Positions 36,974-40,641 of a stretch of 64,000 bases of DNA are shown here, piece by piece; within the stretch, counting starts at the first letter, position 1; every line of letters starts with the position of its first letter. The DNA lies in contig JAGYIV010000008.1 in the NCBI GenBank assembly GCA_018402345.1, positions 1 through 64,000 of the forward strand, given 5' to 3'. The position numbers and the translations under genes were made by a program. The notes under the pieces are model-generated. The model saw only the letters and a list, made by a program, of their open reading frames with translations, was not told where the DNA came from and made no database searches. Source of the stretch: Terrimicrobiaceae bacterium. GTDB taxonomy: Bacteria > Verrucomicrobiota > Verrucomicrobiia > Chthoniobacterales > Terrimicrobiaceae.

Positions 36974-38059
36974 ATGAGCGAATCCACCCCGTCCGACACA
37001 ATCATCCCCCGCCACCGCTTCCTGCCAAGCGAGTCGCTCACGGTGAAGCTCTCGTTCATCGAGCCGCTGATTCCCCCCGCCCGCCTCCTGCGTCCCGCCG
37101 CTCCGGAGGAAACCCTCGACCTCCCCACAGCCAGCGCCCTTGCCCACGTTGTTCCACACATCAGCCTGCGCCAACTCGCCAGCCTGCGCCCCGATTTTGT
37201 CGAACCCTCGAACGATCTCATCCGCCTCCCCGTCCGATCCATCGCCGTTTCCTACCCCCTCAAGGAAACTCCCGTTCGCCGCACCGACGAACCATTCATT
37301 CCCGCGATCGACGCCAGACTCCACTCGCCCATCGCCAACCTCCGCAATCTCTCCGCGCCACTCGGGGAAATGATCTCCCCCCTTCCAGAACCGCCTGAGG
37401 CCTTGATTGCGGACCCCAGCCCAGAGCCCCCTGAAGCCACTGCAGCATCCCCCGCGACACCGCCGGAGGCCCTTGCAGAACCCCTCCCCCGCAAGCTCGC
37501 CGAGATCTTTCCGAACCTCCCGACCTTCCGCCGCGTGGAGGATTTGCCTCCCCCAACCCAACTCGCAAGACCCCTCAACACCACCCTCGAATCCCCTCAC
37601 CTGCCGCACCAGCTTCCCGAAGACACCCAAGAATCCCTCCAAGCCCTCTTCCACACCGAAGACGAACTCGACCTGCAGAAAGTCGTGGAACTCTGCGGCT
37701 CGCTTCCAGGCATCGAATCCTGCGTCCTCGCCCATGAGGAGCGCGTCCTCACGGCGCACAACGCCCCCGACGGCCTCGACCTCGTCTCCCTCAGCTCCCA
37801 CGCCTCAGCCATGCTCCGCTCCATGCAGGACGCCTCGGCACAAATGGGCATCGGCGACATCCCCGCCGTCACCCTCCACACCCCGAAAGGCCCGCTCAGC
37901 ATCCTCCAACAAGACCGCCTCACCCTCATCGTCCTCCACGGCAAACGCGGATTCATTCCCGGCGTGCGCGAAAAAATGACCGCCACCCTCGCGGAACTCA
38001 CCCGCACGCCACTCCAACTCCCCGCCCCACCCACACGCCAAGCACTCCCCCCTCGATAG
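36974..38059 (+). CDS. Proline-rich protein with C-terminal roadblock/LC7-like domain
   Basis: 361 residues in two parts. Residues 1-225 are Pro/Leu/Ala-rich with no clear fold. Residues 230-345 (DLQKVVELCGSLPGIESCVL, AHEERVLTAHNAPDGLDLVS, then TLHTPKGPLSILQQDRLTL) look like a roadblock/LC7 domain, a family that binds small GTPases or acts as a regulatory dimer in bacteria. It is the first gene of a six-gene block with exbB, exbD, a TonB-like protein, a zinc-ribbon protein and a cyclic-nucleotide-binding protein. I find no other roadblock gene beside a Ton complex in memory, so the linkage is worth noting. Confidence 0.7.
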   Translation: MSESTPSDTIIPRHRFLPSESLTVKLSFIEPLIPPARLLRPAAPEETLDLPTASALAHVVPHISLRQLASLRPDFVEPSNDLIRLPVRSIAVSYPLKETPVRRTDEPFIPAIDARLHSPIANLRNLSAPLGEMISPLPEPPEALIADPSPEPPEATAASPATPPEALAEPLPRKLAEIFPNLPTFRRVEDLPPPTQLARPLNTTLESPHLPHQLPEDTQESLQALFHTEDELDLQKVVELCGSLPGIESCVLAHEERVLTAHNAPDGLDLVSLSSHASAMLRSMQDASAQMGIGDIPAVTLHTPKGPLSILQQDRLTLIVLHGKRGFIPGVREKMTATLAELTRTPLQLPAPPTRQALPPR

Positions 38060-38120
38060 CCCGCCTGCGGCAAATCCCCATTGCCGCAGCCGCACGCGAT
38101 CAATTAGAACCTTCCGCACC

Positions 38121-38747
38121 ATGATGGAACTCCTTCAAAAAGGCGGCCCGCTCATGTGGTTGATTCTGGCCGCCAGCATCACCGCTATGGGGGTCTTCGC
38201 CGAACGTCTCGTCTTTCTCCACCGCGCCTCCATCCACACCGGAGACTTCCTTCGCGGCCTCGCAAATCTCCTCAAGGCCAAAAATTTCGCCGAAGCCATC
38301 CAAGAGTGCGCCGCCACCTCAGGCCCCGTGCCACGCGTTCTCCACGCGATCCTCCTCAAGCACGGCGCCCGGCGCGCGGAACTCCGCGAGATCGCGCAAG
38401 AGGCCGGTCAACTCGAAGTCCCCCGCCTCGAGCAAAACCTCGCCCTTCTCGGCACCATCGCCTATGCCACCCCGCTCATCGGCCTCCTCGGCACGATTCT
38501 CGGCCTCCTCACCGCTTTTCAGCAGATCACCGCCCACGGCGGCTACAGCACCGCTGTCGAGATTTCCGGCGGCGTCTACGAGAGCCTCCTCACCTCCGCC
38601 GCCGCGCTCACCGTCGCCATCCCGGCATTCGTCGGCCACAGCTATCTCACCGCCCGCGTCAACGACGTCATTCACGACATCGAACGCGCCTCCATCGAAC
38701 TGCTGGAACTCCTCGACACCTCCGCAGCGCCCACCGACGCGCAGTGA
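38121..38747 (+). CDS. exbB: ExbB/TolQ/MotA-family proton channel
   Basis: 208 residues with three membrane segments (about 10-30, 108-130, 150-172). The last two helices carry TPLIGLLGTILGLLTAF and LTVAIPAFVGHSYL, the ExbB/TolQ pattern. With ExbD it uses the proton gradient to drive a TonB-like periplasmic shaft. The stop overlaps the exbD start by four bases (GTGA at 38744-38747). It could equally serve as TolQ or an AglR-like motor subunit; position beside a roadblock gene leaves that open. Confidence 0.88.
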   Translation: MMELLQKGGPLMWLILAASITAMGVFAERLVFLHRASIHTGDFLRGLANLLKAKNFAEAIQECAATSGPVPRVLHAILLKHGARRAELREIAQEAGQLEVPRLEQNLALLGTIAYATPLIGLLGTILGLLTAFQQITAHGGYSTAVEISGGVYESLLTSAAALTVAIPAFVGHSYLTARVNDVIHDIERASIELLELLDTSAAPTDAQ

Positions 38748-39145
38748 AACTCGAGCGCTCCCCATCGCCCCACCCGGCCTTCCTCTTCATCGCTCCGGCG
38801 TTGGATGTCATCCTCGCGCTCGTCTTTTTCATCGTCCTCAGCACCTCGTTTCTCCTCCAACCCGGCATCGAGGTCTCCGTTCCCGACTCGCCGTTCCTCC
38901 TCGCCCCCCAGCGCGATCCACTGATTATCAGCATCCTCGCCGCTCCGCTCTCCTCCATCTATTTCGAAAACGAAGAAGTCGACGCCGCGGAACTCCGTGA
39001 AAAACTCCAGTCGCGAAAATCCCGCAACCACACCCTCATTCTCAAAACCGACCGCCACGCCCCGTTCGAGCACCTCGCACTCGTCATGAACATCGCCCTC
39101 GAGCTTGGCTATCCCACCGTCATCGCCACCTCGGAGTCGCCGTGA
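38744..39145 (+). CDS. exbD: ExbD/TolR-family protein
   Basis: 133 residues from GTG 38744. One membrane helix (PALDVILALVFFIVLSTSFL) carries the essential Asp near its start (LDV), and the periplasmic domain follows. The helix position and the DVIL motif match ExbD/TolR. It pairs with ExbB as a motor stator. The end of this gene is overlapped by the start region of the TonB-like gene. Confidence 0.87.
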   Translation: MKLERSPSPHPAFLFIAPALDVILALVFFIVLSTSFLLQPGIEVSVPDSPFLLAPQRDPLIISILAAPLSSIYFENEEVDAAELREKLQSRKSRNHTLILKTDRHAPFEHLALVMNIALELGYPTVIATSESP

Positions 39146-39851
39146 AAGCCTCCCCCTCCTCTTCGACTGGCCCCACCGGCATCGCATCCAATTCCTCCTG
39201 CCCGCGGGCATCCTCGTCGCCACCCTCGCCCACGCGGGCATTCTCGTCCTCATCGGCATCATCCACCCCTCCCCCCGCTTCGATGGTCCGAATCCCGCAC
39301 GCGTGTATTTTCTTTCCCCCGAAAATACCTCCCACTCCCATATTCAAGGCCTCCTTCTCTCTTCCGACCCCGCACTCTACGCACCGAAACAAGGCCTTCC
39401 GCTATCGGACATCACCACCACCGCCACCTACACCCCGCAATTCGAGGCCGCCACTCCTTCTCTCATCGCCCTCTCCTCACGCCCCAAGCCCGAAACCCCA
39501 CTCCCGGCGCTCCCCGCCAAGCTCGATCCGATCAAGCACCCCCGCCCCCCCACCCCCAGCAGGGCTCGCGCTGAAAATGTCATCCACCTCACCGGCACTC
39601 TCGCCAACCGCGCCACAGACACCCTTCGCCAACCACTCGACTTGCCGGACACACTGCAAGGCACCCCCTCTTTTCTCGTCGGCGTTTCCCCCGCCGGCGA
39701 AGTCCTCCATATCACGCCCAACCGCTCCACAGGCGACCCGGCGGCCGACACCCGCCTCTTGCACAGCATCCGTTCCCTCCGCTTCAGCGCCACAGAATCG
39801 CCGGGCACGGCTTGGGGCATCGTGGAAATACGCCCTGGAGCAGTGCCATGA
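39105..39851 (+). CDS. TonB-like energy transducer
   Basis: 248 residues from a TTG at 39105; no ATG or GTG lies in frame before the membrane helix, so the start is uncertain. Layout is TonB-like: short cytoplasmic N-terminus, membrane helix at about 30-50 (FLLPAGILVATLAHAGILVL), a Pro-rich spacer (KPETPLPALPAKLDPIKHPR), and a compact C-terminal domain (FLVGVSPAGEVLHITPNRST, then WGIVEIRPG) that resembles the TonB C-terminus. The helix has a His (AHAG), as the TonB helix does. The stop overlaps the next gene by four bases. Confidence 0.68.
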   Translation: MAIPPSSPPRSRRESLPLLFDWPHRHRIQFLLPAGILVATLAHAGILVLIGIIHPSPRFDGPNPARVYFLSPENTSHSHIQGLLLSSDPALYAPKQGLPLSDITTTATYTPQFEAATPSLIALSSRPKPETPLPALPAKLDPIKHPRPPTPSRARAENVIHLTGTLANRATDTLRQPLDLPDTLQGTPSFLVGVSPAGEVLHITPNRSTGDPAADTRLLHSIRSLRFSATESPGTAWGIVEIRPGAVP

Positions 39852-40087
39852 TCCGCCTCACTCTGCCTTGGCTTGTTTTCACGGCCCTTTTCATCTTCCT
39901 CGCCGGTATCCTTCTTGCATGGATTTCCTACGCGATCGCCCGCCGCCGCGTGGAGAAGCGAAAACTCCTCGCCTGGACCGCCTGCCGCGTCTGCGCCTTT
40001 CGTTACAAAACCCCTCCCTCCTCCTCGCCAACCCGCTGCCCACAATGCGGCAGCCTGAACGAACACCACCCCCTGCGCGCGCTCTGA
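39848..40087 (+). CDS. Small membrane protein with zinc-ribbon motifs
   Basis: 79 residues. An N-terminal membrane helix (PWLVFTALFIFLAGILLAWI) is followed by a basic stretch and two Cys pairs, CRVC and CPQC, spaced like a rubredoxin-type zinc ribbon. The start overlaps the TonB-like stop by four bases (ATGA at 39848-39851), so it is part of the operon. The role is unknown; it could scaffold or sense metal at the membrane. Confidence 0.7.
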   Translation: MIRLTLPWLVFTALFIFLAGILLAWISYAIARRRVEKRKLLAWTACRVCAFRYKTPPSSSPTRCPQCGSLNEHHPLRAL

Positions 40088-40140
40088 AGCTTCTCCGCTG
40101 CGCTCTTGACCTACCCACCCCAAGCTGGTTTATCCGACCC

Positions 40141-40641
40141 ATGGCACTCAACGAACCATTTCTCCCCCCGGCGGGCATCATTGCCAACCTGAGCAAGGAA
40201 GACCGCGACATGCTCAGTTCCTACGGCACGTTCCACCTCGCCAACCCGGGCACAGCCATCATCGATCAAGGCAAACCCCACGGGAAACTCTTCTTCACCA
40301 TCAGCGGCACATTCCACGCCCGCCGCTCGGATGCCGGCTCGGACATCCTCCTCGGCAGAATCAACCCAGGCGACTGGATCGGCGAAGTCGATATCTTCGA
40401 TCCCAGCAGCGCCGTCTGCTCGGTCGTCGCCATGGAACCCTCGCAATACTGGGTCATCACCCGCGAATCGCTCGAGGAATACATCAACAACTCCCCCGCC
40501 GCCGGCACCATCATCCTCATCGGCCTCGCCTCCACCCTCGGCCGCCGCGTGCGCGACATCACCCGCAAGCTCTCCGAACAAACCGAACTCTCGAAAATCC
40601 GCGAGTCCCTCTTCAACGAACCGCCGCCCTCCGAGACCTAA
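40141..40641 (+). CDS. Cyclic-nucleotide-binding-domain protein
   Basis: 166 residues, essentially one cNMP-binding beta-roll: AIIDQGKPHGKLFFTISGTF, then GRINPGDWIGEVDIFDPSSA, where GExD(I/L) is the phosphate-binding cassette. No DNA-binding helix-turn-helix follows, so this is a regulatory subunit-like protein rather than a CRP factor. It closes the block that begins with the roadblock gene and abuts the convergent dnaB. The start is 53 bases after the zinc-ribbon gene. Confidence 0.85.
   Translation: MALNEPFLPPAGIIANLSKEDRDMLSSYGTFHLANPGTAIIDQGKPHGKLFFTISGTFHARRSDAGSDILLGRINPGDWIGEVDIFDPSSAVCSVVAMEPSQYWVITRESLEEYINNSPAAGTIILIGLASTLGRRVRDITRKLSEQTELSKIRESLFNEPPPSET

What the first reader, a model, noticed from the sequence alone, without database searches (positions are those of the whole stretch)
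36974..40641. Roadblock-ExbB-ExbD-TonB-like-zinc ribbon-cNMP gene block
Six co-directed genes, with three four-base-type overlaps or longer, join a proton motor (ExbB/ExbD/TonB-like) to a roadblock/LC7 domain, a zinc-ribbon membrane protein and a cyclic-nucleotide-binding protein. A signal-responsive control of a Ton- or Tol-like motor is a reasonable guess. No TonB-dependent receptor is nearby. I know no described system with this combination, so it is the best candidate here for something undescribed.
Basis: inference. Interest (0 to 1): 0.7.

Follow-up and report, generated by a model that had tools for sequence, protein, structure and literature searches.

The report
Roadblock-linked ExbB/ExbD/TonB-like envelope complex
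Five neighbouring genes form a conserved but undescribed membrane complex that looks like a proton-driven motor tied to a cell-polarity-type adaptor, and in many related bacteria the complex is strictly preserved even though the residue that makes such motors run has been lost.

Summary
Roadblock protein, ExbB, ExbD, TonB-like protein and a small zinc-ribbon membrane protein stay together, in this order, in 20 of 25 sampled genomes of the window's family (Chthoniobacterales, Verrucomicrobiota). The cNMP gene is unlinked elsewhere and is not part of it.

(1) In sister families, and once in another family of the class, an MglA-like GTPase and usually an MglB-like roadblock protein sit between the roadblock gene and ExbB. 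The window's lineage has lost the GTPase but kept the roadblock protein beside the motor genes, under purifying selection.
(2) The ExbD aspartate essential in known ExbD/TolR/MotB motors is present in the window but replaced (N, G, A, Q, S, T, C) in 50 of 84 distinct pairs, 14 changes by parsimony. dN/dS stays below 0.08, and the facing ExbB threonine is lost only where the aspartate is lost.

The block is neither the genome's Tol system nor the apparent partner of its two TonB-dependent receptors. Best reading: a roadblock/MglA-associated ExbBD-TonB-like envelope complex, facultatively proton-driven. Linkage and folds are shown; function is inferred. No paper found describes it.

The parts
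36974..38059 (+). Roadblock adaptor protein (361 aa): N-terminal beta/alpha domain (~aa 14-100), Pro-rich disordered linker (~115-208), C-terminal MglB-type roadblock domain (~209-350)
   Evidence: conserved upstream of ExbB in family
38121..38747 (+). ExbB/TolQ-type pore subunit (208 aa); column T148 = T, column T181 = S (E. coli ExbB numbering)
   Evidence: single-copy orthologue in 37 of 39 order genomes
38744..39145 (+). ExbD/TolR-type subunit (133 aa, GTG start); keeps the TM aspartate (APALDVILAL)
39105..39851 (+). TonB/TolA-like arm: TM helix with conserved His (LAHAG), Pro-rich linker, C-terminal TonB/TolA fold. The start is uncertain (TTG 39105; the GTG start of relatives is shifted out of frame by one base here)
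39848..40087 (+). Small membrane protein (79 aa): one TM helix plus a cytoplasmic-side CxxC...CxxC zinc ribbon (topology inferred from sequence)
   Evidence: conserved after TonB across the phylum
40141..40641 (+). cNMP-binding-domain protein (166 aa): adjacent but NOT part of the conserved unit

Best explanation
Five genes (36974-40087) encode an envelope-spanning ExbBD/TolQR-type complex with its own TonB/TolA-like arm and zinc-ribbon membrane subunit. It is distinct from the cell's Tol and receptor-linked Ton systems, and a cytoplasmic roadblock protein is attached to it. In sister lineages that roadblock protein is the first gene of a roadblock-MglA-MglB switch fused to the same motor operon. 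So I infer that the roadblock dimer docks on the cytoplasmic face (ExbB ring or zinc-ribbon protein) and places or switches the complex, while the TonB-like arm pulls on or tethers an outer-membrane or wall partner. In the window's family the GTPase and short MglB were lost and the roadblock adaptor stayed with the motor. The window's copy keeps the proton-path residues and may be PMF-driven. In many relatives the proton path has decayed, so the retained core function is probably tethering or positioning rather than proton-driven work. Shown: gene linkage, folds, residue losses, purifying selection. Inferred: docking, positioning, tethering.
For: Synteny of the five genes in the family and in a second clade. 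Full roadblock-MglA-MglB-ExbB-ExbD-TonB-ZnR(-guaB) operons in L144 (=L062) and L146, contig-truncated versions in L143 and L147, and roadblock-MglA-ExbB without the MglB in L066/L071. The same arrangement in G270 of another family of the class. MglA absent from all 25 sampled family genomes and from 15 of 15 further roadblock-bearing genomes. Roadblock fold as in MglB; TonB/TolA fold. Motor orthologue in 37 of 39 order genomes, including a 0.9-Mb genome. No Plug-domain receptor in G017, G024, G030, G035 although all carry the motor; the window genome's two Plug proteins sit beside other ExbB copies. A separate TolQ-TolR-TolA. Asp replaced in 50 of 84 pairs; T181 polar in 34/34 Asp-bearing and 31/50 Asp-less pairs; 14 changes on the tree; dN/dS 0.008-0.076 for ExbB/ExbD in Asp-less lineages; other ExbDs keep Asp.
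Against: No interaction, localisation or phenotype data exist. The roadblock gene is separated from the motor in G006 and genus g4 and in L131, L132, L140, L142, and in several families the MglA module and the motor are on different contigs, so physical coupling is not obligatory. Some motor-bearing genomes have no detected roadblock gene at all. A zinc-ribbon subunit without other domains gives no clue to its partner.
Confidence: 0.5

Rival explanations
1. An ordinary TonB-ExbB-ExbD system that energises a TonB-dependent receptor encoded elsewhere; the roadblock neighbour is incidental.
For: ExbB, ExbD and TonB-like folds are all present; the window's copy keeps the ExbD Asp and TonB TM His.
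Against: Motor present in genomes without any detected Plug-domain receptor (G017, G024, G030, G035). The two Plug proteins of the window genome lie next to other ExbB copies (C10:93.8k/94.7k and C2:534k/537k). Asp lost in most distinct pairs. Roadblock linked in two clades and, with MglA, in others.
Confidence: 0.1
2. An Agl-Glt-like, MglA-controlled PMF-driven gliding or surface motor (as in Myxococcus), reduced in the window's family.
For: MglA + MglB + ExbB/ExbD + TonB-like + zinc ribbon in one operon in sister families. GltG/GltJ are TonB-like and AglRQS is TolQR-like (PMC9389320, PMC3169522).
Against: Window lineage has no MglA. One ExbD per block, not an AglQ/AglS pair. Proton Asp lost in many motor copies, including those beside MglA-MglB (L062, L064, L146, L147, L195). 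Nearly universal in the order, including an endosymbiont-size genome, which argues against a motility-only role. Outer Glt parts were not searched for.
Confidence: 0.15
3. A core envelope-maintenance (Tol-like) complex of Verrucomicrobiota; the roadblock/MglA genes are neighbours for operon convenience only.
For: Motor present without roadblock in many genomes and across the phylum. Mobile linkage: the roadblock gene is detached in g4, G006 and other families.
Against: A separate TolQ-TolR-TolA locus exists in the window genome. The linkage recurs in two families of the class with different MglA types, and it persists after MglA loss while the downstream flank changes.
Confidence: 0.25

Closest known systems
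ExbB-ExbD-TonB / TolQ-TolR-TolA (5:2 rotary motors)
   Same: Homologous ExbB and ExbD subunits; TonB/TolA-type arm with TM His; overlapping operon genes.
   Different: Extra zinc-ribbon membrane protein and linked roadblock protein; no receptor or Tol partners nearby; proton Asp and its facing Thr repeatedly lost in orthologues under purifying selection.
Myxococcus Agl-Glt gliding machinery with MglA/MglB
   Same: TolQR-like motor, TonB-like partner, Ras-like GTPase and roadblock GAP in the larger system; GltJ also carries a zinc ribbon (own knowledge, no paper read here).
   Different: Here all parts lie in one compact operon; one ExbD, TonB-like and zinc ribbon as separate proteins; no GTPase in the window's family; proton Asp often absent.
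MglA-MglB module (group 5 MglA reported in Verrucomicrobia, PMC4316618)
   Same: Roadblock domain of MglB fold; in sister families next to MglA and a short MglB.
   Different: The window protein has an extra N-terminal domain and a long linker and no GTPase partner in the genome; that paper names no ExbB neighbour.
vWA force transducers beside TolQR-like genes in PVC bacteria (PMC12204202)
   Same: Non-Tol, non-Ton use of a TolQR-like motor in Verrucomicrobia.
   Different: No vWA domain was detected in the block; the arm is TonB/TolA-like; roadblock and zinc ribbon instead.

Membership tests
Ton system (ExbB-ExbD-TonB) | ExbB/ExbD pair with the ExbD TM aspartate | tested here: met
   Window: APALDVILAL. 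Not met in 50 of 84 distinct pairs of the same operon type.
Ton system (ExbB-ExbD-TonB) | TonB-type C-terminal domain and TM His | tested here: met
   Foldseek top rows are TonB CTD/TolA III (E 0.03-0.1, so fold-level only); TM ...LAHAG. No Pfam hit.
Ton system (ExbB-ExbD-TonB) | Serves TonB-dependent receptors | tested here: inconclusive
   Receptors absent in several motor-bearing genomes and beside other ExbB copies in the window genome; binding not testable.
Tol-Pal | Is the genome's TolQ-TolR-TolA set | tested here: not met
   A separate TolQRA with TolA over the curated cut-off at C2:569k.
Agl-Glt gliding machinery | MglA GTPase present | tested here: not met
   No MglA in the window genome or 24 other family genomes; present in sister families.
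Agl-Glt gliding machinery | Two TolR-like subunits (AglQ, AglS) | tested here: not met
   One ExbD in the block.
Agl-Glt gliding machinery | Outer/periplasmic Glt proteins | not tested
   No search was made for them.
MglB/roadblock family | Roadblock/LC7 fold | tested here: met
   VIA Z 13.6 over 121 residues to MglB 6h5b_C; Pfam just under cut-off for the protein (20.1 against 23), just over in the genome search (23.4).
MglB/roadblock family | GAP activity on a partner MglA | not testable with these tools
   No MglA partner found in this genome.

The most novel reading that the evidence does not exclude
A family of ExbBD-type complexes that has been uncoupled from the proton motive force many times independently and persists as a roadblock/GTPase-positioned envelope scaffold: a 'motor' whose selected function is not proton-driven work.
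Probability: 0.35. Interest if true: 0.82.

Novelty: new variant of a known kind. Interest (0 to 1): 0.64.

Why it matters
ExbD/TolR/MotB are described as having one strictly conserved, essential aspartate (PMC9008036, PMC12204202). Here is a conserved, near single-copy operon in which that residue is lost again and again while the proteins stay under strong purifying selection, plus a direct genetic link between this motor class and an MglA/roadblock polarity switch. It gives natural Asp-to-Asn variants within one genus for testing what such complexes do without proton flow, and a defined candidate for how Verrucomicrobiota place envelope machines.

Tried and rejected
cNMP protein as a sixth member: rejected. 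Block as the Tol system or as partner of the genome's receptors: rejected or unlikely. Compensating acidic residue in the ExbD TM of Asp-less copies: none found except an E at +13 in L200; an upstream D/E at -6 in some distant copies occurs with and without the Asp. Correlation of Asp loss with MglA linkage: none (D in L066, L070, L071, L191; non-D in L062, L064, L146, L147, L195). TonB His is lost only in the L129-L141 clade and L195, not in all Asp-less lineages. Fold of the N-terminal domain of the roadblock protein: not settled, because the fold search was filled by roadblock hits; it resembles the repeat domain of the longer sister proteins (hhalign E 1.4e-4, probability only 52%), and sequence search of solved structures gave nothing credible. 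First roadblock alignment was too diverse for a collection scan. Promoter/terminator scan not above shuffles. A branch-collapsing version of the loss count gave the same number as the uncollapsed tree, so I do not rely on it.

Full report
OBSERVATION. The six ORFs are where the finding says, all on the + strand. ExbB and ExbD overlap by GTGA (38744-38747) and TonB-like and zinc-ribbon by ATGA (39848-39851). The TonB-like frame opens at TTG 39105, 41 bases inside ExbD. In relatives the gene starts at a GTG overlapping the ExbD stop (V-K-x-P-x-L-L-F-D-W-P); in the window the same GTG (39142) is one base out of frame, which suggests either a real small frameshift rescued by the TTG or an indel error in a C-run. 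Family searches support ExbB, ExbD and cNMP clearly. Robl_LC7 is just under its cut-off, TonB has only a weak tonB_Cterm match, and the zinc ribbon is seen only as weak matches to rubredoxin-like ribbons plus the CxxC...CxxC pattern.

STRUCTURE. An AlphaFold2 model of the roadblock protein from 28 relatives has a confident N-terminal beta/alpha domain (about residues 14-100), a low-confidence Pro-rich linker and a confident C-terminal domain. The C-domain aligns with MglB and other roadblock proteins (MglB 6h5b_C: Z 13.6, 2.7 A, 121 residues). The TonB-like model has a TM helix, a linker and a C-terminal domain whose best Foldseek rows are TonB C-terminal domains and TolA domain III; E-values are weak (0.03-0.1) but the top eight rows are all of that superfamily.

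SYNTENY. Named relatives place the genome in Chthoniobacterales (Spartobacteria/Terrimicrobiaceae MAGs; the family name is inferred). hisI (divergent, where the contig shows it)-roadblock-ExbB-ExbD-TonB-ZnR is kept in 20 of 25 sampled family genomes, window included (in G005 the contig ends inside ExbD). In G006, G018, G021 and G024 the roadblock gene is detached from the motor, and in G011 it lies at a contig end. The five-gene order is also kept in a second clade (L129, L130, L133-L136, L138, L139, L141; L137 up to its contig end) and in L148. Among the loci examined, the cNMP gene, dnaB and rplI were found next to the block only in the window, and cNMP orthologues sit on other contigs of the genus, e.g. 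G003 C42 against C13. So the cNMP gene is not a member.

MglA AND MglB. In other families of the order the interval between roadblock gene and ExbB holds an MglA-like GTPase (L062, L064, L066, L071; also L143-L147) and usually a short MglB-like roadblock protein (L062, L064, L144, L146, L147), giving roadblock-MglA-MglB-ExbB-ExbD-TonB-ZnR-guaB in the longest contigs. The MglB-like protein matches NCBIfam GTPaseActivMglBThm below cut-off (59.6 of 200 bits) and Robl_LC7 above cut-off. In G031 and G202 the two modules lie a few kb apart in opposite orientation. In G270, another family of the same class with a divergent MglA (41%), the fused arrangement recurs. Elsewhere the MglA module and the motor are on different contigs. 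MglA is missing from all 25 sampled genomes of the window's family (with positives in the same search) and from 15 of 15 further genomes; the window's genome has one detectable roadblock domain. So the window's block is a derived state: GTPase gone, roadblock kept. The roadblock C-domain is under purifying selection there (dN/dS about 0.02-0.10).

NOT TOL, NOT AN OBVIOUS RECEPTOR ENERGISER. The genome has nine other MotA/ExbB matches. One locus is TolQ-TolR-TolA with TolA over its curated cut-off. The only two Plug-domain matches lie beside other ExbB copies (C10:93.8/94.7 kb and C2:534/537 kb). The block's ExbB orthologue is present once in 37 of 39 order genomes, including G030 of 915,884 bases, and four motor-bearing genomes (G017, G024, G030, G035) have no detectable Plug domain.

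THE PROTON PATH. ExbD TM aspartate: present in the window, but N/G/A/Q/S/T/C in 50 of 84 distinct ExbB-ExbD pairs of this operon type across order and phylum, with closely matching flanks and no replacement acid in the TM except in L200. Asp-to-Asn occurs inside the window's own genus (L045, L046, L047, L049). Controls: the other aligned ExbDs of the window genome, and one unrelated ExbD of L044, all keep Asp. ExbB column T181 is Thr/Ser in 34/34 Asp-bearing pairs but Ala/Met in 19/50 Asp-less pairs; T148 is lost (Met) in three of these. The sequences are related, so these counts are not independent events, but T181 loss appears in several separate parts of the tree. In the L129-L141 clade the TonB TM His is Gln as well, so every one of the four residues examined has been replaced in some members of that clade. 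Parsimony on an ExbB+ExbD tree with the Asp column masked needs 14 changes (18 losses if regain is forbidden); branch support was not used. dN/dS of ExbB in Asp-less close pairs is 0.008-0.065 and of ExbD 0.013-0.076, the same range as in Asp-bearing pairs. These are intact, constrained genes, not decaying ones.

MECHANISM. Shown: linkage, folds, residue losses, constraint. Inferred: the roadblock dimer is a cytoplasmic adaptor of the complex, MglA-switched in sister families and constitutive or differently switched here; the TonB-like arm reaches an outer-membrane or wall partner; the shared function across the order does not depend on proton flow, though the window's copy could still be driven. 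Whether the zinc ribbon or ExbB is the docking site is open. GltJ of Myxococcus combines zinc ribbon, TM and TonB-like parts in one protein; the zinc ribbon there is from my own knowledge and is only a lead.

LITERATURE. Wuichet and Sogaard-Andersen (PMC4316618) report MglA in Verrucomicrobia and varied neighbourhoods for those groups; the word ExbB does not occur. Agl/Glt comparisons: PMC3169522, PMC9389320. The ExbD Asp is described as strictly conserved and essential (PMC9008036; PMC12204202). No paper in the library holds roadblock, ExbB, ExbD and small GTPase together. The library lacks most subscription papers.

CAVEATS. Most genomes are MAGs; distant phylum copies are called by operon type (ExbB-ExbD, nearly always with a zinc-ribbon gene) and may include paralogues; no experiment exists.

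Noticed in passing
window 39105-39851 / 39142-40641: The TonB-like start codon of relatives (GTG) is one base out of frame in the window, and that frame runs open to the end of the cNMP gene (499 aa); a possible indel in a C-run or a real start shift to TTG 39105.
   Followed up: partly
L062:5645-8623, L070:6719-8734, L067:8317-10197, L069:8235-9863, L195:4447-6837: Sister roadblock proteins carry one to several copies of a ~97-residue N-terminal repeat domain (LPLqEIFxxLPxxALxxRxDQ) without a Pfam family.
   Followed up: partly
L129-L141: A Spartobacteria clade in which, in the pairs examined, ExbD Asp is replaced in all, ExbB T181 is Ala in all, T148 is Met in three, and TonB TM His is Gln: natural proton-path losses in a conserved complex.
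   Followed up: yes
L103 (G030, 915,884-bp genome): An endosymbiont-size genome keeps ExbB-ExbD-TonB-ZnR-guaB (ExbD Ser at the Asp position), with no Plug-domain receptor, roadblock protein or MglA detected.
   Followed up: partly
L062, L066, L070, L071, L100, L103, L106, L144, L146, L148: guaB (IMP dehydrogenase) follows the zinc-ribbon gene in many families, and hisI lies divergently upstream in others; meaning unknown.
   Followed up: no
G000:C2:569k (L152): Separate TolQ-TolR-TolA locus in the window genome; TolB/Pal neighbours were not recognised there.
   Followed up: partly
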